From: Selenobaculum gibii
Lineage (GTDB): Bacteria; Bacillota; Negativicutes; ICN-92133
NCBI RefSeq assembly: GCF_030273445.1
Contig: NZ_CP120678.1
Coordinates: 256,401 to 320,400, forward strand
DNA: 64,000 nt
Reading direction: 5' to 3'
In this document: positions 23,142 to 58,292 of the stretch, in pieces
How positions within the stretch are numbered: position 1 is the first letter of the stretch
How the letters are laid out: each line of letters starts with the position of its first letter
Made by a program: the position numbers and the translations under genes
Notes under the pieces: model-generated
What the model was told of the DNA's origin: nothing
Seen by the model: the letters and a program-made list of their open reading frames with translations, nothing else
Database searches by the model: none

Positions 23142-23208
23142 ATATTTATACTCTTTGCTGCATAGAATTTCTAAGGGTAGATGCGATTGTGGCGAAGGGG
23201 GCGTTTTT

Positions 23209-24192
23209 ATGCGGCGATTATTGGCATATATGATTGGAATTTTGTCTTTTGCCGTTATCGTTGTACCTGTTTTGATTACAGGGGTAAATTTAGGTAAAGA
23301 AAGTGGTGGAAATATGACGAATTTATCAAGCTTAGAAAGCGTGATGATTAACGTATATCTCCATGATAAAAATAAAATTGTTAGTATGACGCTTGAAGAA
23401 TATGTACAAGGTGTGGTTGGAGCAGAAATGCCGGCGGAATTTTCTAAAGCGGCGTTAGAAGCGCAATCGGTAGCGGCGCGAACTTACGCGGTAAAACACA
23501 TGCATAAGTTCGGCGGTAGTGGCGTTAGTGATCATCCTGATGCAGATGTGAGCACCGATCATACAGTAAATCAGGCTTGGGTAAGCGATGACGTACTAAA
23601 GGAACGATGGGGAAAAAAGTATGATGAATATAAGCAAAAAATTAAATTGGCTGTTTTAAAAACCCAGGGAATGATTTTAACGTATAAAGATGAGCCGATT
23701 AATGCGTTATTTCACTCGACGAGTGGCGATAGAACTGCTAGTGCAAAAGAAGTTTGGGGCAATGATTATCCTTATCTACAGAGCGTTGAATGTAAATGGG
23801 ATACTGCTTCCCCTCGCTATAAAGACAATAAGACGATTAGCGTAGCGAACTTAGCAGAATCATTTGGGCAAGATGCTGTGACGGTTAGTGCCGGTAACGG
23901 AGATTTAATAAAAATATTAAGCTTAACGGATTCAGGTCGCGTTGCTCAGATAAAAATAGGGAACAAAAACTTTACAGGGAGTGAGGTTCGTAATACCTTA
24001 GGATTACGTTCCGAAAACTTTACGATAGAAAGTAAGGGAGATGAAATCATCTTTCATACGATTGGTTATGGGCATGGTGTAGGGTTATGTCAATATGGCG
24101 CTAACGGCATGGCAAAAGAAGGTTGGGCATATCAGGATATATTGAAATATTATTATAAAGGGGTCGAATTAAAAAATATTTATGGCTCTTAA
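23209..24192 (+). CDS. spoIID: Stage II sporulation protein D (SpoIID/LytB family)
   Basis: Membrane-anchored lytic transglycosylase that in sporulating Firmicutes trims septal peptidoglycan during engulfment. It has 327 residues with an N-terminal membrane helix (about residues 4-24). Family motifs are YVQGVVGAEMPAEFSKAALEAQSVAARTYA with the catalytic Glu near residue 76, FHSTSGDRTASAKEVWGNDYPYLQSV, and the C-terminal GYGHGVGLCQYGANGMA. ATG 23209 follows GAAGGGGGCG; an upstream in-frame ATG at 23155 lacks a site. The murA-spoIID order matches Bacillus apart from the intervening aldolase. Together with spoIIID it places the host in the spore-forming lineage. Confidence 0.93.
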   Translation: MRRLLAYMIGILSFAVIVVPVLITGVNLGKESGGNMTNLSSLESVMINVYLHDKNKIVSMTLEEYVQGVVGAEMPAEFSKAALEAQSVAARTYAVKHMHKFGGSGVSDHPDADVSTDHTVNQAWVSDDVLKERWGKKYDEYKQKIKLAVLKTQGMILTYKDEPINALFHSTSGDRTASAKEVWGNDYPYLQSVECKWDTASPRYKDNKTISVANLAESFGQDAVTVSAGNGDLIKILSLTDSGRVAQIKIGNKNFTGSEVRNTLGLRSENFTIESKGDEIIFHTIGYGHGVGLCQYGANGMAKEGWAYQDILKYYYKGVELKNIYGS

Positions 24193-49080: not shown

Positions 49081-49557
49081 ATGAGCAGTATTCAAGGAGT
49101 AAATCACAATTTATGGAATACAGCTACTTCTGCTTCAACATCTTCTGTAAATAAAATGGATGATGTAGCTGAACAGTTCAAAAAAACATTAGCTGGAGAG
49201 ACTAATTCTTCAAAAAGTCAAGGGAAAGATGGCAGTGCTGAGGAGACGACAACGACTATTCAACGGAGTGTAATTACGGCTGATGATGGCTCGCAGATTG
49301 TAGTATTGACACAAATTACTGTTGATTCTTCAGGAAAGCAAATCGAATCCAAAGTAATCAGTAAACAAAAAATAAGTACAGGAAATGATAAACAGTCTCA
49401 ACACGGCAGTAATGCATTCAACATAGGGAAATCCCAAGATAAAGATGATGATAAGACTACCTTGAATGCAATGGCAGACAGAGCTAGAAAAGAATATGAA
49501 GATAATAGTGTGATAAATTCTTCGCAATTAGAAAATATTTTTAAGGCGAATATATAA
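49081..49557 (+). CDS. Hypothetical protein with ESKVISKQK motif (paralogue B)
   Basis: A 158-residue hydrophilic Ser/Thr/Gln-rich protein of unknown function. The central part (about residues 55-100, TTTTIQRSVITADDG ... GKQIESKVISKQK) is shared with the protein at 44564-45004; the ends differ. The N terminus is low complexity and looks disordered, and the C terminus is helical and charged. There is no signal peptide. TTAGGAGAG precedes the ATG. A sigma-D-like promoter upstream hints at co-expression with motility genes. Confidence 0.7.
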   Translation: MSSIQGVNHNLWNTATSASTSSVNKMDDVAEQFKKTLAGETNSSKSQGKDGSAEETTTTIQRSVITADDGSQIVVLTQITVDSSGKQIESKVISKQKISTGNDKQSQHGSNAFNIGKSQDKDDDKTTLNAMADRARKEYEDNSVINSSQLENIFKANI

Positions 49558-49708
49558 TTGCAGCAAATTTATTAATGGATAGTTAGATTATCACTTTAAT
49601 TTTATACACTGGTGAATTTGTAGGGAATAACCTCTACGGCTATCAGTTCTGTCAATGTAGATTTTTGCATATACATTTGATAGCAAAGTCATTGGGGGAA
49701 TGGACAGG

Positions 49709-49840
49709 ATGAAAGAATATATTCGCAAACGTGTATTAGAGATTTGTGCGCATATTTTAGAGACCAAACATACAGTAAGGCAGGCTGCCAACGTTTTTGG
49801 TGTTAGTAAATCTACTGTACATAAAGATAATATAAAATAG
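49709..49840 (+). pseudogene. spoIIID: 5' part of spoIIID (codons 1-36 native), interrupted by the inserted element
   Basis: ATG 49709, 8 bases after GGGGGAA, opens a 43-residue reading frame. Its first 40 residues read as the N-terminal half of SpoIIID, including the helix-turn-helix TVRQAANVFGVSKSTVHKD. It then runs into NIK and a stop at 49838-49840 inside the element. SpoIIID is the mother-cell regulator that switches the sigma-E to the sigma-K programme. The missing C-terminal half is found intact and in frame at 58140-58292. This is best viewed as one half of a split gene awaiting excision of the 8.3-kb element rather than a decayed gene. Confidence 0.9.
49817..49824. other. Left junction core of the spoIIID element (attL)
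   Basis: GTACATAA at 49817-49824, inside the shared 10-bp direct repeat CTGTACATAA. Host sequence lies to the left, element sequence (AGATAATATAAAAT) to the right. The inferred central dinucleotide is CA at 49820-49821. Confidence 0.8.
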
Positions 49841-49843
49841 AAC

Positions 49844-49888
49844 GATAAAAAAGAATTTTCAACTTATAGCTGGGAATTCTTTTTTATC
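49844..49888 (+). terminator. Terminator just inside the left end of the element
   Basis: A perfect 14-bp stem GATAAAAAAGAATT/AATTCTTTTTTATC (49844-49857 with 49875-49888) with a 17-base loop. It stops transcripts entering from the spoIIID promoter four bases after the truncated frame ends. Confidence 0.8.
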
Positions 49889-50000
49889 ATTGTAGGGTTA
49901 AAATATAAAGCAGAGTAGTCAGCGGATAAAAATAAATAGGGAATTTTTTATTGATGAAGATAATATTTATTAGTACAAGCATTAGAGGGAGATGAAAAAA

Positions 50001-50141
50001 GTGAAAATTCAATTTGAAAACTGCAATTCAAGTAGTGAGATAGAAAAATTTTTACCGTTAATTCTTGCAGAAGCATTGATGATGAAAATCAAGTGCGATT
50101 TAGAACAAAGTAAATCAAAACCAGAAGAAATGATGGGGTAA
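50001..50141 (+). CDS. Small 46-residue protein before the recombinase, candidate recombination directionality factor
   Basis: GTG 50001 is 9 bases after GAGGGAG; the ATG at 49992 would abut that site. The ORF encodes a small protein with a Met/Leu-rich helix (LPLILAEALMMKIKCDLE) and a charged tail. It ends 36 bases before the recombinase start, so the two are likely co-transcribed. Its size and place suit an accessory excision factor such as SprB of SP-beta, but there is no visible homology and the role is a guess. Confidence 0.5.
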   Translation: MKIQFENCNSSSEIEKFLPLILAEALMMKIKCDLEQSKSKPEEMMG

Positions 50142-50177
50142 ACTAGACACAGAATCTTTACTGTTTGGAGGAATCAT

Positions 50178-51713
50178 ATGCTGAATGATCAAGTGAAATC
50201 AAAGATTGCAGCCTATTGTAGGGTATCAACGGATAAAGATGAACAGATTATGAGTTTACAAGCCCAGAAAGAATTTTTTATGGAATATGCAAATCGTAAC
50301 CATTTAGAACTGGTTGAGGTATATGCGGATGAGGGAATTAGTGGAACAAAATTAAAAAATCGTCGTGAATTTAAGCGAATGATGAAAGATGCAGAACGTG
50401 GAAGATTTTCCTCGGTGCACGTAAAAGACGTTTCTAGGCTTGCTCGTAATGTAGTAGATTTTTTGCAAAGTATTCGTAAACTCAAATCTTTAAATGTTGA
50501 TTGTCGATTTGTTACGGCGAATATGTCCAGCAATGATGGTGAGCTTACATTGACCATTTTAGCTGCTGTTGCCCAAGAAGAAAGTGCTAATATTTCCAAA
50601 AGAGTTAAATTTGGCAAAAAGCGTAATGCAGAGAAAGGGCGTGTACCTAATTTAGTTTATGGATATGATAAAATTCATGGGGAATATTTCGATTTAAAAG
50701 TTAATCCATATGAAGCAAGGATCATTCGAAAAATGTTTGATTTGTATCTAAATCAAGGATTTGGTTTTTTTAAAATTGCAAATTTTTTAAACAAAGAAGG
50801 GATAAAGACAAAGCGAGATTGTAAATGGCATCCATATTCAGTAGGAAAAGTTCTAAGCAATCAACTTTATATGGGAAGAGTAATAAATGGAAAATCCTAT
50901 GTGAAAGACTTTCTAACTGGTGAACGGGGCGTGAATCGCGAAGCGGATTTTTTTATTGCAAACAAACCAGATTTAATGATTGTTGATGAATATACATTTA
51001 AAAAAGCGCAAAAAATTATGAAAAAACGAAATGAAGATTTTCGACATAAAAAGGAGCGGCAATCGAATAAGTATTGCTTTAGTACATTGATTCAATGTGA
51101 GAGCTGTGGATACAGTTTTCGTCGGATGTATAGAAAGTATACAAAAGAATATATACGATGGGTTTGTACAGGGCGTAACTCTCAAGGAAAAGACTTTTGT
51201 AATAATGGAACTACGATTGATGAAGCAGAACTGCTAACTGCTATTCAAGATTATTTTTCAGAAATGATAGATTCACAAAAAAATTTAATGGGGAAAGTTA
51301 TTCATTTACTAAAAAGAAAATGGAGTAAAGAGGATTTTACTTGTAATACAAATAAAATTCAAAAAGAAATTGTTCGACTAAAACGGATAAAGCGCAAGCA
51401 AACTGAAATGTATGAATTTGAGATTATTTCGATAGAGGAATTAAAAGAGCGTGTGGGCGAGATTAATAGGCAAATTGAGTCGTATGAAAAGGAGATGAAA
51501 AGTTTTAAACAAGAAGAAAATATTCACATGCAAATTGATATGCTAGTGCAAAGATATTGTGTAAATATAAAAGAAATTTTAAGCAGTGGTGAGTGTGGCA
51601 ATATGTTATTAAAAAACTTAATTGAAAAAATTTTAGTTAGTGAACAAGGCAATATAAAAGTTAAATTAAATTTATTTTCAGAAGTAGACATAATGAATAT
51701 ATGTAGTGGCTAA
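50178..51713 (+). CDS. Large serine recombinase of the spoIIID element (SpoIVCA-like)
   Basis: A 511-residue site-specific recombinase. Residues 1-150 are the resolvase-like catalytic domain with the nucleophile Ser in YCRVSTDKDEQ (about residue 18) and conserved Arg residues in KDVSRLARN. Residues 155-260 are a recombinase domain. A zinc ribbon follows, with Cys pairs in CESCGYSF and in VCTG/FCNNG (about residues 310-355), then a coiled-coil region rich in Lys/Glu (390-460). GGAGG precedes ATG 50178. It lies 0.35 kb from attL, as recombinases of skin-type elements do. It is predicted to excise the element and rejoin spoIIID. Confidence 0.94.
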   Translation: MLNDQVKSKIAAYCRVSTDKDEQIMSLQAQKEFFMEYANRNHLELVEVYADEGISGTKLKNRREFKRMMKDAERGRFSSVHVKDVSRLARNVVDFLQSIRKLKSLNVDCRFVTANMSSNDGELTLTILAAVAQEESANISKRVKFGKKRNAEKGRVPNLVYGYDKIHGEYFDLKVNPYEARIIRKMFDLYLNQGFGFFKIANFLNKEGIKTKRDCKWHPYSVGKVLSNQLYMGRVINGKSYVKDFLTGERGVNREADFFIANKPDLMIVDEYTFKKAQKIMKKRNEDFRHKKERQSNKYCFSTLIQCESCGYSFRRMYRKYTKEYIRWVCTGRNSQGKDFCNNGTTIDEAELLTAIQDYFSEMIDSQKNLMGKVIHLLKRKWSKEDFTCNTNKIQKEIVRLKRIKRKQTEMYEFEIISIEELKERVGEINRQIESYEKEMKSFKQEENIHMQIDMLVQRYCVNIKEILSSGECGNMLLKNLIEKILVSEQGNIKVKLNLFSEVDIMNICSG

Positions 51714-51714
51714 T

Positions 51715-51753
51715 AAAAATGGCAGAACTCAGTGGTTGAGTCCTGCCATTTTT
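51715..51753 (+). terminator. Bidirectional terminator between recombinase and tctC
   Basis: A 17-bp stem with one mismatch (51715-51731 with 51737-51753), 5-base loop and T tail on both strands. Confidence 0.88.
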
Positions 51754-51771
51754 ATTGTTGAATATGATAAA

Positions 51772-52776
51772 CTATTGTTTTTGTGCTTGGATTTGCTCAA
51801 TAATATCAGTTTCTTTTAATATGTTAGTCAACTTTTCAGTGTCGGATATCCATTTCTTTTTAGTTTCTTCAGAATTTAAATAACTGACTTCCATGCCTAA
51901 CTGGTCAAGATTTGTTTTAAAATCAGGGTCGCTAATCATATTTTTTAGTGATTCAGCAAGTTTATTCTTTGTTTTTGCGTCAATTTCTTTTGGTGCGGCT
52001 ATACCATACCAATTTTCTAAAACAATATCAAATCCTAATTCTTGAAAAGTAGGTATTTTGCTAAGTGCAGAATTGGATAAATGTTTTTCTCCAGATATGG
52101 CTAATGCTTTTAATTTACCGCTTTTAATTTGTTCAGTTAAAGCACCAGGGCTGGCAATGATAAATTGGACATGATCACCTAGTAATGCAGATATTGATTC
52201 ACTTGCTCCGCGAAAGGGCACTTGTTCGATTTCAATATTCGCTTTTTTGGCAAATATTTCACCAATAATGTGGCTAGAGTCACCAATTCCTGAATGCCCG
52301 AACTTGATTTCCCTAGGGTGTTGATTACAGTATGTAATTAAATCATCTAATGTCTCCCAAGAGTGATTGGCGTTTACAACTAAAATTGAAGGGGTTGTTG
52401 AGATTTGTACGATTGGCTCAAGTGCAGTTGGGTAATGATATTTTGTAGCTCCATATAATGGTTGCAAAATTAAATTTAAAGGACTTAATCCAATTGTATA
52501 TCCATCAGGAGATGCAGTAACTAATTCATTAAGACCAATTGTACAACTTCCACCAGGTTTATTAAGAATAATAAAATTTTGATTAAGATATTTTGGAGCT
52601 AATTTTTCCAATGCCCTTGCTTGTAAATCAGTTCCGCCGCCGGCACTAAATGGGACAATTACATTTATAGGCTTATTAGGGTAATCATTTTTTTCTTCAG
52701 TCATTGTACATCCAGCCATTGTAATTCCTGTAATGAATATACTCATCATAAGAAATACTAGTGATTTTTTTTGCAT
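51772..52776 (-). CDS. tctC: Tripartite tricarboxylate transporter substrate-binding lipoprotein, copy 1
   Basis: A 334-residue Bug-type solute receptor. The N-terminal signal ends in a lipobox (TMAGCTMTEE, Cys about residue 23). Family motifs are YPNKPINVIVPFSAGGGTDLQAR and PDGYTIG, then GHSGIGDSSHIIGE and VPFRGASESISALLGDHVQ, and the C-terminal KKKWISDTEKL. It delivers a carboxylate to TctAB. It closely resembles copy 2 next to it, including the upstream leader around the ribosome site, indicating recent tandem duplication. The substrate is unknown; Bug proteins bind citrate, tartrate, nicotinate, terephthalate and others. Confidence 0.9.
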   Translation of the reverse strand: MQKKSLVFLMMSIFITGITMAGCTMTEEKNDYPNKPINVIVPFSAGGGTDLQARALEKLAPKYLNQNFIILNKPGGSCTIGLNELVTASPDGYTIGLSPLNLILQPLYGATKYHYPTALEPIVQISTTPSILVVNANHSWETLDDLITYCNQHPREIKFGHSGIGDSSHIIGEIFAKKANIEIEQVPFRGASESISALLGDHVQFIIASPGALTEQIKSGKLKALAISGEKHLSNSALSKIPTFQELGFDIVLENWYGIAAPKEIDAKTKNKLAESLKNMISDPDFKTNLDQLGMEVSYLNSEETKKKWISDTEKLTNILKETDIIEQIQAQKQ

Positions 52777-52827
52777 GTCTTTACATCTCCTTTTTATTAT
52801 TCATTAAGTTTTTAATTACTTTAAAAA

Positions 52828-53832
52828 TTATTTTTTCTGTGCTTGAATTTGTTCAATAATATCAGTCTCTTTTAACATGTTAGATAGCTTTTCATTATCA
52901 GCAATCCATTTTTTTTTCGAGTCTTCGGAATTTAAATAACTTACTTCCATGCCAAGCTTTTCAATATTTACTTTAAATTCTGGGTCTGCAATCATTTTGG
53001 TTAATCCTGCTTCTAATTTCTTTTTTGTCTCAGAAGTAATTTCTTTTGGTGCAATAATGCCGAACCAATTTTCTAAAACTATATTATATCCTAGTTCTTT
53101 AAAAGTTGGTGTTTGCGCAAAAATAGGATTAGTAGAGCGATTTTCGCTTGATATAGCCAATGCTCGTAATTTTCCACTTGCGATTTGCTCCGTTAAAGCA
53201 CCTGGGCTCGCAACTACGATTTGAATATGTCCCCCTAACAAAGCAGCTGTAGACTCACTTGCACCTTTAAATGGAATTTGATTAATGCTGATATCAGCTT
53301 CTTTGGCAAATATTTCTCCGATTATATGGCTTATATCTCCGATTCCGGCATGCCCTAAATTTATTTTATTAGGATTCTGCTTACTAAATTTAATTAAATC
53401 ATCAAGTGTTTGCCATGGTTGGTCTGTATTTACTACAAATAATAAAGGAGTAGTAGAAAACTGAACTATTGGTTCAAGTGCAGTTGGATAATGGTATTTT
53501 GTTGATCCATATAAAGGTTGCAAAAGTAAAGCTGCGTAACTGATCCCGATGTTATATCCATCGGATGGTGAAGTTACTAGTTCATTCCAAGCAACACTTC
53601 CACCACCACCAGGTTTATTAAGAATAATAAAATTTTGGTCAAGATATTTAGGTGCTAATTTTTCTAGAGTTCTAGCTTGTAAGTCGGAACTTCCTCCAGC
53701 TGTAAATGGGACAATTACATTTATAGGCTTATTAGGGTAATCGTTTTTTTCTTCGGTCATTGTACATCCAGTCATTGTAATTCCTGTAATAAATAAACCC
53801 ATCATAAGAAATACTAGTGATTTTTTTTGCAT
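52828..53832 (-). CDS. tctC: Tripartite tricarboxylate transporter substrate-binding lipoprotein, copy 2
   Basis: A 334-residue paralogue of copy 1 with the same lipobox (TMTGCTMTEE) and motifs (INVIVPFTAGGSSDLQAR, GHAGIGDISHIIGE, PFKGASESTAALLGGH). ATG 53832 is 8 bases after AAGGAGAT and aligns with copy 1; the frame is open for 36 more codons upstream but overlaps tctA. It starts 4 bases after the tctA stop. Differences at the binding site (GGSSDLQAR here, GGGTDLQAR in copy 1) suggest a changed ligand preference. Confidence 0.9.
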   Translation of the reverse strand: MQKKSLVFLMMGLFITGITMTGCTMTEEKNDYPNKPINVIVPFTAGGSSDLQARTLEKLAPKYLDQNFIILNKPGGGGSVAWNELVTSPSDGYNIGISYAALLLQPLYGSTKYHYPTALEPIVQFSTTPLLFVVNTDQPWQTLDDLIKFSKQNPNKINLGHAGIGDISHIIGEIFAKEADISINQIPFKGASESTAALLGGHIQIVVASPGALTEQIASGKLRALAISSENRSTNPIFAQTPTFKELGYNIVLENWFGIIAPKEITSETKKKLEAGLTKMIADPEFKVNIEKLGMEVSYLNSEDSKKKWIADNEKLSNMLKETDIIEQIQAQKK

Positions 53833-53836
53833 GTCT

Positions 53837-55366
53837 TTACATCTCCTTTTTATTATTATCGTGACACTTTTTTGTGTACGATATTTGAAAATTTTTGAAC
53901 CATTTAAACAAATTATAGATAGCAAAAAGAAGCCCGACACATATAATTGTTGCGGAAATCGGTCGTGTTAGCATGTCTAGTAAACTGCCGTCACAGATAA
54001 TTAATCCTTGAATTAATCTTTGTTCAAGTTCAGGGCCAATGACTATTCCAATGATGAGTGGTGCTGGCTCAAAGCCTGTACGATTTAGGAAGAATCCTAG
54101 TACGCCAAATAATAAAATGCATATTAGATCAAATACACTATTGTTAACCGCATACGCTCCGGTTAATGTTAGTACAATAACTAATGGCATTAGTATATAT
54201 AACGGTGTTCGTAATAGTTGGACGAAAACACCAACCAAGGGCAAATTGATAATAAGCAGCATAACATTACCTACGTACATACTGGCGATAAGACCCCAAA
54301 ATAAGTCTGGATATTGTGTAATTAAGGAAGGTCCCGGAAGAATTCCGTGGACCATGAATCCGCTTAGTAAAATTGCGGTACCGCCACAAAACGGCAATCC
54401 TAAAGATAAAAGAGGAATCATGCTTGCGGAACTAGCTGAATTGTTTGCAGACTCAGGACCGGCGACACCTTCAATTGCACCATGACCAAATTCAGCAGGA
54501 TTTTTGCTGCAATATTTTTCTAATGCATAGGAGACAAACGTTGAGATTGTTGATGAAGGCCCTGGCATTAATCCGACTAAAAAGCCCGAAATACTGCCGC
54601 GGAAAATTGGGGCTATAGAGCGCCGGCATTCCTCGTGTGTTGGATATAAATCGCGAAATTTAAATTTTTGAATAGCTGATGGCGGGGCGGAGGAGGCCAT
54701 GACAGTTAGAATTTCACCGATGCCGAATATTCCCATAGCTAGAAGGGATAAATCAAATCCACGGTCTAGCTCATCAATACCAAAAGTAAATCGGCTAATT
54801 CCTGACAGGGAGTCTAATCCAGCCGTACCAAGCATAATTCCTAAAGTAACCATTAACGTGGATTTTAGCATAGAAGTCCCTGTTAGTTTTGTTAAAAAAA
54901 ATAAGGCGACAATTGATAAGGCAAAGTATTCTGGTGGTCCAAAGCTTAAGGCAAGGTTGGCTAAAGGTGGAGCAAACAAGGTGAGCCCGATGACGCCGAT
55001 AGTGCCAGCAATAAATGAACCTATTGCTGAGACTGTTAAAGCAGCACCTGCTCTTCCACGTTGTGCCATGGCATAGCCATCGATACAGGTTACAACAGAT
55101 GCTGTTTCTCCGGGGACATTCATCAAAATAGAGGTAGTCGATCCGCCATATTTAGAACCGTAATAAATTCCTGCAAACATAATTAAAGATGAGGTAGGAT
55201 CCATCGTATAACTAAATGGCAGTAATAAAGAAATTGCACCGATTGTTCCAATTCCAGGCAAAACTCCGACGAGTGTTCCTAATAAAACTCCTATGGCACA
55301 TGCTACTAGATTTGCTGGCATCATGCTGACGGTAAAACCGTGTAATAGCATATCGAAAGTTTCCAA
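53837..55366 (-). CDS. tctA: Tripartite tricarboxylate transporter large membrane subunit TctA
   Basis: A 509-residue permease with about eleven helices. Typical features are GVLPGIGTIGAISLLLPFSY, the highly conserved GIYYGSKYGGSTTSILMNVPGE near residue 70, and GLMPGPSSTISTFVSYALEK with GPESANNSASSASMIPLLSLGLPFCGGTA in the second half. It starts with TTG 55366 behind AAGGAGGT at 6 bases, since no nearer ATG precedes METFDML. Part of the five-gene minus-strand operon inside the element. Confidence 0.92.
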   Translation of the reverse strand: METFDMLLHGFTVSMMPANLVACAIGVLLGTLVGVLPGIGTIGAISLLLPFSYTMDPTSSLIMFAGIYYGSKYGGSTTSILMNVPGETASVVTCIDGYAMAQRGRAGAALTVSAIGSFIAGTIGVIGLTLFAPPLANLALSFGPPEYFALSIVALFFLTKLTGTSMLKSTLMVTLGIMLGTAGLDSLSGISRFTFGIDELDRGFDLSLLAMGIFGIGEILTVMASSAPPSAIQKFKFRDLYPTHEECRRSIAPIFRGSISGFLVGLMPGPSSTISTFVSYALEKYCSKNPAEFGHGAIEGVAGPESANNSASSASMIPLLSLGLPFCGGTAILLSGFMVHGILPGPSLITQYPDLFWGLIASMYVGNVMLLIINLPLVGVFVQLLRTPLYILMPLVIVLTLTGAYAVNNSVFDLICILLFGVLGFFLNRTGFEPAPLIIGIVIGPELEQRLIQGLIICDGSLLDMLTRPISATIICVGLLFAIYNLFKWFKNFQISYTKKCHDNNKKEM

Positions 55367-55391
55367 GGTAAAACCTCCTTAGCTGTTTTGA

Positions 55392-55814
55392 TTAAGGTAA
55401 TGTTACATCTAGGTAGTATTTAAAAAGTAAATAAAAAGAGGTTGAACTGATAAAAGAAATGATAAATGGATTCCACCGATCTGTTTTTTCTGATGCAATT
55501 TTAAGTAGATAGAATAGAAAAAATAAGGTTGAGAAGAAGTAGCCCAAAAATTTAAAAAACAAGATATAAAAAATCAATCCTAAAAGTATAAATGTAAATT
55601 TTGTCCAGTTTACTGATTCTGCAGACTCTGCTTTGGTTGAACGGAGTTGTTTGATAATTAATATGAAAGACAAAATTATAGCGATAATTCCAATGGTTAT
55701 TGGCAAAAAACCAGACTGAGGATTTTGAAGCGAGCCAAAGGATAATTGATGAGCAAAATAAAGATAGAGTAAACTTACTATTGCAAACATAGCGGTAAGT
55801 ATTTTCTCGGTCAT
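55392..55814 (-). CDS. tctB: Tripartite tricarboxylate transporter small membrane subunit TctB
   Basis: A 140-residue membrane protein with four hydrophobic segments and the loop FGSLQNPQSGFLPITIG after the first helix, typical of TctB. It works with TctA as the secondary-transport core. AAAAGGAG precedes the ATG. It lies between the kinase gene and tctA. Confidence 0.88.
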   Translation of the reverse strand: MTEKILTAMFAIVSLLYLYFAHQLSFGSLQNPQSGFLPITIGIIAIILSFILIIKQLRSTKAESAESVNWTKFTFILLGLIFYILFFKFLGYFFSTLFFLFYLLKIASEKTDRWNPFIISFISSTSFYLLFKYYLDVTLP

Positions 55815-55827
55815 AGCAATACTCCTT

Positions 55828-57276
55828 TTAGTTTTTATTATTTGAATCTATGGAGGGGAAGGTAACGATGAAGGTTGTACCTTCTCCTATTTGACTGTTG
55901 AATGTTAGAGTGGCTTTATGACGATGAATAATCCGAGAGCAAATCGCTAGGCCAAGTCCTGTTCCTTTATCCTTGGTTGTAAAAAATGGTGTAAATAAAT
56001 GATCTCGAATGTCTTTTGAAATCCCAATTCCAGAATCTTTAATTGTTAGAACTACATTATTGCTAGTTGATACTGTTGAGATATGGATTGATCCTCCATC
56101 AGGCATAGCATCAATGCTGTTTTGAATCATATTAAGAATAAATTGATGAATGCTATTTTTATCTAAAAGTAAATTTGGAATATCGCTTAAGTCTAAATAA
56201 ACTTTACAGTCATAATATAGTGCATTTGCGTGAAGTAAAGGATAGATATCTTGTAAAATGGTATTTAAATTCATTTTTTGAAAGTTCATTGCTTTATTTT
56301 TTGATAGGGATAAAAACTCAGTAATAATCGCATTGGCACGATTAATTTCGGTAATCATTAAATCAAAATTTTCTTTATGTTTATTGAATTCATTCTTTCG
56401 GCTCATGAATTGAAGCAGACCTTTTACGGTTGTAAGTGGATTGCGAATTTCATGCGCGATTCCAGCGGCCATTTCGCCCACGATATTTAATCGGTCTAAT
56501 TGTGTCATTTTTTCTGTTTGTTTGCTTATATAATTTAAAATTGGAGCAAATTCTGAAAAGGAAATATCTATATCGTGAGAGTTCCCCGAAGAGATGGATT
56601 TAGCAAATTTAATCAAATCTTCTTTCAATCTAAGGCATAGTTCATGAAAAGCAATAACACAAAATAAAAGCATAACAAATGTGATTAAAAAGGTGTCCAT
56701 TGTTCTTTGCCATAGGATTTTATATACTTTACTTTGATTAACGCTAGCGAAAGCCTGGGCAACGATAACTCCATTCTCTTTAATTGGAATACAGTAAGTA
56801 ATTGATTTTTCACCATGCCATAAAGAGGAAAACTCCTCTTCAATGAGTGACGTTGTAGTCACATCATGGATGGGATTTGCTTTATTTAGTGACATGTCGA
56901 TAAGTAAAGATTCATCAAATTTTGACCCAATAGCAACTACATTTTTACAGTTTTTCGAATAGTAGCCAAATTGAATTCGTTTATAAGGCATACAAACTTC
57001 ATCAATTATTGGTTGGAGCTTTTGGTTAAGAGAATAAATAGTCAATTGATTTGATTGATTTAGAGCTGTAGCTTGTATATAAGTTTCTGAAAAAAGATTA
57101 GGGGGGCTTTTCTCAGCTAAAAATTCTGTGATTGAAGTTAAATAACGTAAATTTTGTTTATTTTCAGCTTGTAACAAAAGCCAGTCGTTATAAATGGTAA
57201 TTACCAGTATAACGAGAAAAACAACACTGACTATTTTAATATTAAACTTCGTTGTTAAATTGATCACCTTCATCAT
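55828..57276 (-). CDS. Membrane sensor histidine kinase without adjacent response regulator
   Basis: A 482-residue kinase: helix about residues 10-30, extracytoplasmic sensor region about 31-160 (Cache-like), second helix about 165-188, then HisKA with the phospho-His in GEMAAGIAHEIRNPLTTVKG near residue 258. The ATPase motifs are NMIQNSIDAMPDGG, DSGIGIS, and FTTKDKGTGLGLAICSRII. It resembles NtrB/sporulation-kinase-type sensors around the H box. It is first in the operon with tctBAC, so it may sense the transported carboxylate, but TctD-type response regulators are absent here. ATG 57276 chosen over an unsupported upstream start. Confidence 0.9.
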   Translation of the reverse strand: MMKVINLTTKFNIKIVSVVFLVILVITIYNDWLLLQAENKQNLRYLTSITEFLAEKSPPNLFSETYIQATALNQSNQLTIYSLNQKLQPIIDEVCMPYKRIQFGYYSKNCKNVVAIGSKFDESLLIDMSLNKANPIHDVTTTSLIEEEFSSLWHGEKSITYCIPIKENGVIVAQAFASVNQSKVYKILWQRTMDTFLITFVMLLFCVIAFHELCLRLKEDLIKFAKSISSGNSHDIDISFSEFAPILNYISKQTEKMTQLDRLNIVGEMAAGIAHEIRNPLTTVKGLLQFMSRKNEFNKHKENFDLMITEINRANAIITEFLSLSKNKAMNFQKMNLNTILQDIYPLLHANALYYDCKVYLDLSDIPNLLLDKNSIHQFILNMIQNSIDAMPDGGSIHISTVSTSNNVVLTIKDSGIGISKDIRDHLFTPFFTTKDKGTGLGLAICSRIIHRHKATLTFNSQIGEGTTFIVTFPSIDSNNKN

Positions 57277-57523
57277 GTGAAACCTTTCTTGTCTACAAGT
57301 TATTTTCGACAACAAACGACAAAAATAAACAATAATGTAAAATAATTGTTGCAGTATTAAGGTTTCGCTATTGGGGATTAAACTCCTGCAAAAAATGTAA
57401 ATTGGTAATTCTTTTTATCTTTTTAGAGAAGGATTTTTGAAACAAAGGTTGAACATTGATAAACTTCATATAGGATTTCTAATTTAAAAATATGTTTCGA
57501 TATTTAGAAGGATGGTAAAGAAT

Positions 57524-58087
57524 ATGGTTTATGAAGTAGCTTTATTGGATACAAAAATTTTATTTCTGTTGCAAGAAGAGGTTAGAAATGAATATTTAAC
57601 ACCAGTTTTTAAATTGATTACGCACAGTGGTGATATGGGGATCATTTGGATTATAAGTGCTATCGTATTGTCGATTTATAAAAAAACAAGGACGATTGGC
57701 ATATTGGCATTTATGGCCATGTTGCTATATGCTTTAATAGGGAGTGGATTTTTAAAGAATATTGTTCAGAGAACGCGCCCGTTTGATGCGCTAGATGGAT
57801 TATCTTTATTGACGGGGCGTCCATCAGGATATTCTTTTCCGTCAGGACATACTGGAATTGCATTTGCAGCAGCAGGTATTTATCTGAGGTATCTTCCACT
57901 AAAATATGGAATAGGTGCAATGGTTTTAGCAGGTTTAATAGGATTTTCTCGCCTATATTTGGGGGCACATTATCCAAGTGATGTTATCACTGCTGCTTTT
58001 ATTGGAAGCGTATCGGCGCTTTTGATTATTAAATTGAGTCGATATATAAATGAAAAAACGAATTTTAAATATAATAAAGTGACCTGA
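57524..58087 (+). CDS. PAP2-family membrane phosphatase (undecaprenyl-diphosphatase-like)
   Basis: A 187-residue protein with about five helices and all three PAP2 motifs: KNIVQRTRP near residue 82, PSGHTG near residue 110, and SRLYLGAHYPSD near residue 145. Such enzymes dephosphorylate lipid pyrophosphates such as undecaprenyl-PP (BcrC-like) or phosphatidates. ATG 57524 is preferred; ATG 57512 abuts the GAAGGA site. It is the last gene inside the right end of the element, about 50 bases from attR, and probably cargo. Confidence 0.88.
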   Translation: MVYEVALLDTKILFLLQEEVRNEYLTPVFKLITHSGDMGIIWIISAIVLSIYKKTRTIGILAFMAMLLYALIGSGFLKNIVQRTRPFDALDGLSLLTGRPSGYSFPSGHTGIAFAAAGIYLRYLPLKYGIGAMVLAGLIGFSRLYLGAHYPSDVITAAFIGSVSALLIIKLSRYINEKTNFKYNKVT

Positions 58088-58100
58088 GATAGAGAGTGTG

Positions 58101-58133
58101 TGGAAATGTAAAAATTTTACGTTCCATTTTTTA
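58101..58133 (+). terminator. Terminator just inside the right end of the element
   Basis: TGGAA and GTAAAA pair with TTTTAC and TTCCA (small internal loop), followed by a run of six T residues that also forms part of the attP arm. It stops PAP2 transcripts from reaching the spoIIID 3' half. Confidence 0.65.
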
Positions 58134-58139
58134 TTATCT

Positions 58140-58147
58140 GTACATAA
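58140..58147. other. Right junction core of the spoIIID element (attR)
   Basis: GTACATAA at 58140-58147 within the same CTGTACATAA repeat. Element sequence (ATTTTTTATTATCT) lies to the left and spoIIID sequence (GGATATGATAG) to the right. Exactly 8,323 bases from attL. Confidence 0.8.
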
Positions 58148-58292
58148 GGATATGATAGAAAGATTGCCCATGTTGAATAAAGCTTTGTCGGACAGAGTGA
58201 GAATTGTCTTGGAAAAAAATAAGGCGGAACGCCATATTCGGGGTGGCGAAGCGACGCGAAAGAAATATAAATATTATAAAGAAAATCTTTAA
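58140..58292 (+). pseudogene. spoIIID: 3' part of spoIIID (last 50 codons)
   Basis: The frame from GTA 58140 reads VHKDMIERLPMLNKALSDRV ... HIRGGEATRKKYKYYKENL and stops at 58290-58292. This is the C-terminal half of SpoIIID, including the RGGEAT block and the basic tail. It has no ribosome site or start codon at the right place and cannot be expressed correctly until joined to 49709-49816. The frame matches the left half exactly. mbl follows 119 bases later, the same neighbour as in Bacillus. Confidence 0.9.

What the first reader, a model, noticed from the sequence alone, without database searches (positions are those of the whole stretch)
49709..58292. spoIIID is split by an 8.3-kb serine-recombinase element that can restore the gene on precise excision
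Seen directly: the N-terminal half of SpoIIID (to VHKD) at 49709-49828 and the C-terminal half (from VHKD) at 58140-58292 share the direct repeat CTGTACATAA, and both halves are undamaged. Joining at the core gives one 86-codon frame with the complete HTH and the RGGEAT block. A large serine recombinase lies 0.35 kb inside the left end. Established knowledge: skin in Bacillus sigK and similar elements in other sporulation genes are excised in the mother cell by such recombinases. Inference: this is a developmental switch in a different master regulator. Because SpoIIID acts earlier than sigma-K, the excision would gate the whole late mother-cell programme. I do not recall spoIIID being described as a target.
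Basis: partly seen in the sequence, partly recalled or inferred. Interest (0 to 1): 0.95.

Follow-up and report, generated by a model that had tools for sequence, protein, structure and literature searches.

The report
Excisable element splitting spore regulator spoIIID
In this bacterium the gene for the spore regulator SpoIIID is cut in two by an 8.3-kb element carrying its own recombinase, related elements cut the gene at the same place in dozens of other bacterial genomes, and the recombinase would likely rebuild the gene by precise excision during spore formation, a step still to be tested.

Summary
spoIIID is present only as an N half and a C half, 8,323 bp apart. Joined, they give an 86-residue SpoIIID. 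It is not a one-off. spoIIID is split at the same place in 8 of 53 Negativicutes genomes that have it, and 7 of those 8, but no other of 380, hold a close relative of this recombinase. A contig search by recombinase, blind to spoIIID, returned 80 loci; 73 have the spoIIID C half downstream on the same strand. Of 50 of their genomes searched whole, 46 have both halves and no intact copy. Of 22 rejoined pairs, 21 are in frame. The predicted circle junction is a palindrome centred on the cut codon. A conserved small protein, a directionality-factor candidate, is in 71 of 84 elements, often behind a sigma-E/K-like -10 box, though not in the window. The host keeps sporulation genes, and its sigK is split too. 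Excision is inferred, not shown. No listing or passage seen names spoIIID as a target.

The parts
49709..49819 (+). spoIIID 5' half (in-frame starts at 49700 and 49709) up to the crossover in the His codon
   Evidence: Pfam SpoIIID profile 1-39, 63.7 bits; sequence
49815..49824 (+). attL core, direct repeat copy CTGTACATAA; predicted crossover dinucleotide CA at 49820-49821
   Evidence: sequence; palindrome centre
49820..49849 (+). element-side arm of attL, with the GAACG motif shared by relatives
49992..50141 (+). 49-aa small protein (start may be GTG 50001), candidate recombination directionality factor
   Evidence: HMM built from 36 non-Negativicutes sequences finds it at E=2.9e-07; all other hits in the window have E above 1; no Pfam or PHROG match
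50178..51713 (+). 511-aa large serine recombinase (Resolvase + Recombinase + zinc ribbon)
   Evidence: Pfam; PHROG integrase E=9.1e-110; 56-60% identical relatives in 6 other class genomes, all with split spoIIID
51772..52776 (-). cargo: TctC receptor
   Evidence: Pfam TctC
52828..53940 (-). cargo: second TctC receptor
   Evidence: Pfam TctC
53837..55366 (-). cargo: TctA transporter
   Evidence: Pfam TctA
55392..55814 (-). cargo: TctB transporter
   Evidence: Pfam TctB
55828..57315 (-). cargo: sensor histidine kinase
   Evidence: Pfam HisKA + HATPase_c
57512..58087 (+). cargo: PAP2 phosphatase
   Evidence: Pfam PAP2
58115..58142 (+). element-side arm of attR, with the ACGTTC motif
58138..58147 (+). 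attR core, direct repeat copy CTGTACATAA; predicted crossover CA at 58143-58144
58143..58292 (+). spoIIID 3' half, with HIRGGEAT block and stop
   Evidence: Pfam SpoIIID profile 35-80, 70.5 bits

Best explanation
spoIIID is interrupted by an 8.3-kb, non-phage gene-intervening element of the skin type, and its serine recombinase, likely helped by the small protein encoded just upstream, would excise the element precisely and rebuild spoIIID, probably in the mother cell after sigma-E becomes active. Shown by sequence: two intact halves, the shared core, palindromic att arms, a recombinase with complete domains, the conserved small protein, and the same arrangement in many genomes. Inferred: strand exchange at the CA of the His codon; the small protein as directionality factor; control by sigma-E/K. 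Because the mother cell lyses, excision there costs the lineage nothing and the spore chromosome keeps the element, as described for skin (PMC6957869, passages). Since sigK of this host is split as well, two excisions (spoIIID and sigK) would be needed to complete the mother-cell line.
For: Only two half matches to SpoIIID in the genome. Same split in 8 of 53 class genomes with SpoIIID over the cut-off, of 250 searched. Besides the window's own, recombinases of 57-61% identity occur in 6 of 380 class genomes, all 6 with split spoIIID. Recombinase-guided contig scan: 73 of 80 loci carry the spoIIID C half downstream, 0 a full gene; in 50 of those 80 genomes searched whole, 46 have both halves and no intact copy. 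21 of 22 rejoined pairs restore the frame. Palindrome centred on CA, 23 of 28 in the window. Small protein in 71 of 84 elements; upstream of it CATANNNT in 41 of 70 against a control mean of 6.3, maximum 10 of 20 draws. Host genes: Spo0A, SigE, SigG, SpoIIR, SpoVAC, SpoVAD, SpoIIM, SpoIVB, SpoIID, SASP, SpoIVA. Contigs L118 and L155 and two G068 contigs end within about 10 bases of the att core, as a mixture of integrated and excised DNA could give.
Against: No read, PCR or expression data show excision. The window has no convincing sigma-E/K-like site before its small protein (best rank 491 of 127,930); of 6 Negativicutes rows, G000, G058 and G090 have no CATA there. G122 (65% complete) has a C half without RGGEAT, a left arm that does not match (10 of 28, p=0.197) and no small protein found. 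In L135 and L166 the recombinase lies away from spoIIID, which is intact in those genomes. G400 has both halves and an intact copy. G068 has split halves but no such recombinase in its assembly. Spore formation by the unnamed host is inferred from genes only.
Confidence: 0.83

Rival explanations
1. An ordinary mobile island used spoIIID as its landing site and inactivated it; the host sporulates poorly or not at all and nothing developmental happens.
For: Excision unproven. Cargo varies between elements. No good promoter match in the window. G122's C half is broken. Recombinase found away from spoIIID in L135 and L166.
Against: Halves are intact and in frame in 21 of 22 pairs from Negativicutes and Clostridia; dead genes would be expected to decay. 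The host keeps early and late sporulation genes. Sigma-E/K-like boxes precede the small protein in many relatives.
Confidence: 0.09
2. Excision happens but is not cell-type controlled: it occurs in growing cells as ordinary island mobility, and restored spoIIID is incidental.
For: Recombinases of skinCd and SPbeta are expressed constitutively (PMC5595907, passages). Contig ends at the core in L118, L155 and G068 suggest mixed states, without sporulation data. Many class genomes have an intact gene and no close relative of this recombinase (45 of 53).
Against: Sigma-E/K-like boxes before the small protein in relatives. Among 50 carrier genomes only 3 also show an intact spoIIID, though these genomes were picked for carrying the recombinase.
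Confidence: 0.07
3. The halves act without joining: the N half, which holds the HTH, works alone, or the two pieces associate.
For: Both halves lie in open frames that could be translated (49700-49840 and GTG 58098-58292).
Against: In the gin case the truncated 5'-GerE had no activity before rearrangement (PMC5595907, passages). It would leave the conserved att arms and recombinase unexplained.
Confidence: 0.01

Closest known systems
gin element in gerE of Bacillus cereus ATCC 10987 (PMC5595907, passages)
   Same: Element without phage genes that splits a very small mother-cell regulator gene; serine recombinase plus directionality factor; short core inside an inverted repeat; sporulation-specific excision shown there
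   Different: Target gerE, not spoIIID; 28.6 kb with three recombinases against 8.3 kb with one; Bacillus, whereas this group was found in Negativicutes and Clostridia; excision untested here
skinCd in sigK of C. difficile (PMC5025042, passages)
   Same: Large serine recombinase plus a small partner protein encoded in the element; splits a mother-cell regulator gene; partner gene under sigma-E
   Different: There SpoIIID helps to switch on the partner gene; here spoIIID itself is the split gene; skinCd is prophage-like
skin in sigK of Bacillus subtilis; SPbeta in spsM; vfbin in spoVFB; yin in yabG
   Same: Interrupted sporulation gene, restored on excision
   Different: Prophage or prophage-like; other targets; spoIIID is not in the lists read (PMC10747680 and PMC6957869, passages)

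Membership tests
Large serine recombinase | Resolvase catalytic domain + Recombinase domain + zinc ribbon | tested here: met
   Pfam PF00239, PF07508, PF13408 all over cut-off; SPbeta YokA among PDB matches
Large serine recombinase | Catalytic serine conserved | tested here: met
   AYCRVST with S17 invariant in 7 relatives; that S17 is the nucleophile is recalled
Large serine recombinase | attP palindrome around a central dinucleotide; short core | tested here: met
   23 of 28 complementary around CA in the window; attB 10
Sporulation gene-intervening element | Interrupts a sporulation gene, halves intact and in register | tested here: met
Sporulation gene-intervening element | Element carries its own recombinase | tested here: met
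Sporulation gene-intervening element | Element carries a directionality factor | tested here: inconclusive
   conserved small protein is a candidate; activity untested
Sporulation gene-intervening element | Precise excision rebuilding the gene during sporulation | not testable with these tools
   no reads or cultures
Sporulation gene-intervening element | Recombinase or directionality factor under a mother-cell sigma factor | tested here: inconclusive
   sigma-E/K-like -10 boxes in many relatives, no good match in the window
Prophage or defective prophage (skin, SPbeta type) | Phage structural or replication genes in the element | tested here: not met
   The six cargo ORFs of 140 aa or more that were scanned are TctA, TctB, two TctC, a histidine kinase and PAP2; one viral-contig scan confirmed no relative of the recombinase

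The most novel reading that the evidence does not exclude
A widespread family of dedicated DNA switches cuts spoIIID at one codon in Clostridia and Negativicutes, and in hosts such as this one sporulation runs through two DNA excisions in series: sigma-E triggers repair of spoIIID, and rebuilt SpoIIID with sigma-E then triggers repair of sigK. Each excision would act as an irreversible checkpoint in the mother cell.
Probability: 0.5. Interest if true: 0.93.

Novelty: new variant of a known kind. Interest (0 to 1): 0.87.

Why it matters
The known gene-intervening elements in the passages read sit in a handful of sporulation genes. Here one group of recombinases is tied to one place in a conserved mother-cell regulator in two classes of bacteria, including many gut commensals. 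It would explain spoIIID genes that look missing or truncated, gives a direct PCR marker (rejoined gene, attP circle), and, because sigK excision depends on SpoIIID in C. difficile (PMC5025042, passages), suggests ordered DNA rearrangements as a developmental timer. The recombinases and their natural target could also serve as site-specific integrases.

Tried and rejected
Family and order searches for relatives held only the window's own genome, so the nearest comparison is class level. A viral-contig scan with the recombinase alignment gave 163 pattern matches and no confirmed relative. A terminator scan of 49500-50300 found none. A weight matrix trained on 31 loci of the contig scan (chosen for a CATA box) found no convincing promoter in the window. 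'Prophage' was rejected for lack of phage genes among the cargo, chance insertion because of recurrence. Split sigK does not track split spoIIID: 7 of 8 spoIIID-split Negativicutes have no intact sigK in the listed rows, but neither have 6 of 12 genomes with intact spoIIID that I chose as controls. In one search my MreB query was cut out of frame, so its blank result means nothing. In one search the script mis-sited L102 (in frame when re-sited) and could not site L146; G068 was left out because its contig ends at the core (it had stopped the script).

L088-L090 are contigs of three class genomes (equal lengths), so 77 of the 80 are new. The Clostridia draw (391 genomes, 280 with a SpoIIID match) printed only its best rows; in its summary table 16 genomes have a best E-value weaker than 1e-23: 9 with exactly two matches (G388, G380, G477, G489, G564, G718, G726, G736, G785), 2 with three and 5 with one. 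Their places were not listed, and G388 was the chosen centre.
Full report
WHAT IS THERE. The sequence details of the finding are correct. The N half of spoIIID ends inside the His codon of STVHKD at 49820, and the C half resumes in the same codon at 58143; the repeat CTGTACATAA flanks both. Pfam finds the halves as profile positions 1-39 and 35-80. The one-contig, 2.68-Mb genome has no other SpoIIID match. Rejoining gives an uninterrupted 86-residue protein. The 8,323 bp between hold a small ORF, a large serine recombinase, a tripartite tricarboxylate transporter set with two receptors, a histidine kinase and a PAP2 phosphatase. Of 30 class loci with intact spoIIID, 27 have flgF and 25 have SpoIID in the held flanks. 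In the window a flgF-like gene follows the C half with one gene between, while SpoIID is at 23155-24192, 25 kb from the N half.

HOST. It has Spo0A, SigE, SigG, SpoIIR, SpoVAC, SpoVAD, SpoIIM, SpoIVB and SpoIID over NCBIfam cut-offs and SpoIIGA below its cut-off, SpoIVA and a SASP; a SigF-like gene next to SpoVA genes was named by eye. It looks like a spore former; that it makes spores is not shown.

RECURRENCE IN THE CLASS. Of 250 class genomes, 53 have SpoIIID over the cut-off: 45 intact and 8 in two halves that meet at the same place (G000, G058, G029, G090, G012, G070, G068, G122). The recombinase search covered 380 class genomes; 85 have a match at 1e-40 or better. Besides the window's own, 6 genomes have one of 57-61% identity, and all 6 are split ones; in other genomes the listed best is 44% (G006) and the next 41% (a 50% fragment lies in G058). 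G068 has no such match, but its two half-gene contigs end and begin at the att core. In a FastTree of 91 recombinases the other six Negativicutes form one clade (support 1.0) without the window's, which falls with them and with Ruminiclostridium, Anaerobacterium, Marasmitruncus and L150 in an 11-member clade (0.964); its pairing with L150 has support 0.0, and the node joining all 84 against seven outgroups 0.2. A separate entry into this lineage is possible, not shown.

RECURRENCE BEYOND. A scan of named genome contigs with the recombinase alignment, blind to spoIIID, kept 80 loci at 46-60% identity, many of them Lachnospiraceae or Oscillospiraceae by title. Of these, 73 have the SpoIIID C half downstream on the same strand, 18 have an N half within the held DNA (17 on the same strand, L150 inverted), none a full gene; of the 7 without a C half, L118 and L155 end at the att core, L114, L165 and L166 end within 2.7 kb, and L093 and L135 do not. 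Whole-genome search of 50 of the 80 host genomes: 46 with both halves and no intact copy; G400 both halves plus an intact copy; G409 and G428 intact only; G427 N half only. In L135 (G409) and L166 (G428) the element's right arm runs into other DNA at or just after CA: moved or independently placed copies. In a draw of 391 genomes of the class of G388 (Clostridia, recalled), 280 have a SpoIIID match, and 9 show two weak matches and no full one, so the split is a minority state.

ATT SITES. The element-side arms, set head to head as in an excised circle, form palindromes centred on the CA of the His codon: 23 of 28 positions in the window (shuffled mean 12.5) and 14-25 in 19 of the other 21 pairs (shuffled means 6-10); the two low ones are G122 (10) and the mis-sited L102 (9). 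The same count on the spoIIID side is 6-11. ACCGTTC...GAACGGT-like ends are seen from Clostridia to Negativicutes; the window has ACGTTC...GAACG. Of 22 pairs with both halves in held DNA, 21 restore the frame; G122 loses RGGEAT.

PARTNER PROTEIN AND CONTROL. In 21 complete elements two coding families are shared by nearly all, the recombinase (21) and a small protein (20); other widely shared ORFs overlap the recombinase in other frames, as judged by eye. An HMM built from 36 non-Negativicutes sequences finds the window's 49-aa ORF at E=2.9e-07 and nothing else in the window below E=1. With an HMM iterated on the elements themselves, the protein is in 71 of 84 elements on the element's strand, and in 70 of the 80 scan loci on either strand. 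Upstream, CATANNNT occurs in 41 of 70 against a control mean of 6.3 (maximum 10 of 20 draws from the same loci), and CATAN2-4T in 64 of 70 against 12.55 (maximum 19). In the consensus of 31 loci a CTATTTT box stands 12 bases before it. This resembles the sigma-E -10 KCATANANTN printed in PMC3416734 (passages). The window lacks a good match, and G058 and G090 have no CATA there. The window's small ORF starts about 150 bp after the N half's stop on the same strand and no terminator was found between, so read-through from the spoIIID promoter is possible; that is conjecture.

MECHANISM. Most likely the gene is off in vegetative cells and in the spore chromosome because it is cut; in the mother cell a sigma-E-dependent small protein would turn the recombinase from integration to excision, and spoIIID is rebuilt. 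In C. difficile, and as reported for B. subtilis, skin excision needs SpoIIID besides sigma-E (PMC5025042, passages; PMC6957869, passages). The host's sigK is cut too: cores 38,100 bp apart, halves that rejoin in frame, and a serine recombinase at the right end. If the same dependency holds here, spoIIID repair must come first. That order is inference.

NOVELTY. Lists of interrupted sporulation genes in the passages read name sigK, spsM, spoVFB, spoIVFB, spoVR, gerE and yabG, not spoIIID (PMC10747680; PMC6957869). The one mention of spoIIID in PMC5595907 is in its reference list; PMC3416734 and PMC3533761 mention the gene, in the passages seen, as present or as missed by annotation. The searches listed no paper that presents spoIIID as a target, judged from titles, abstracts and the passages named; only open-licence PubMed Central papers are held. 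The kind is known (gene-intervening element); the target, the breadth and the recombinase group are new as far as searched.

Noticed in passing
G000:C1:819749 and 857849 (L052-L054): The same genome's sigK is split by a 38.1-kb element with its own serine recombinase and palindromic arms; the halves rejoin in frame. Some cargo looks like restriction or anti-phage genes (by eye, untested).
   Followed up: partly
class genomes: sigK is interrupted in many of the Negativicutes searched, at two different positions (profile about 115/109 and about 145/138).
   Followed up: partly
L144 / G418 contigs C52 and C92: Three SpoIIID N-half matches about 6 kb apart and one C half in one genome, as if the N half were repeated.
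   Followed up: no
L093 / G382 contig C3: In Marasmitruncus massiliensis the two halves lie 125 kb apart; whether the recombinase of L093 lies between them was not checked.
   Followed up: no
L147:9974-11713: The recombinase reading frame runs without a stop into the spoIIID C half, a would-be fusion.
   Followed up: no
L150:9301-11728: The N half lies on the opposite strand to the C half and the recombinase is about 6 kb off: an inversion or a misassembly.
   Followed up: no
L135, L166: Recombinase next to non-spoIIID DNA, with spoIIID intact elsewhere in the genome; the flank changes at or just after CA.
   Followed up: partly
L065 (G006): A 44% identical recombinase in a genome with intact spoIIID also has a short upstream ORF that resembles the small protein by eye.
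   Followed up: no
att flanks of Clostridia elements: TGTAACAAA or TGTAACAGA in att flanks resembles the C. difficile SpoIIID box KRTAACARK (PMC5025042, passage); could be chance, or feedback of SpoIIID on its own att site.
   Followed up: no
window 51772-53940: Two neighbouring, similar TctC receptor genes in the cargo suggest a tandem duplication.
   Followed up: no
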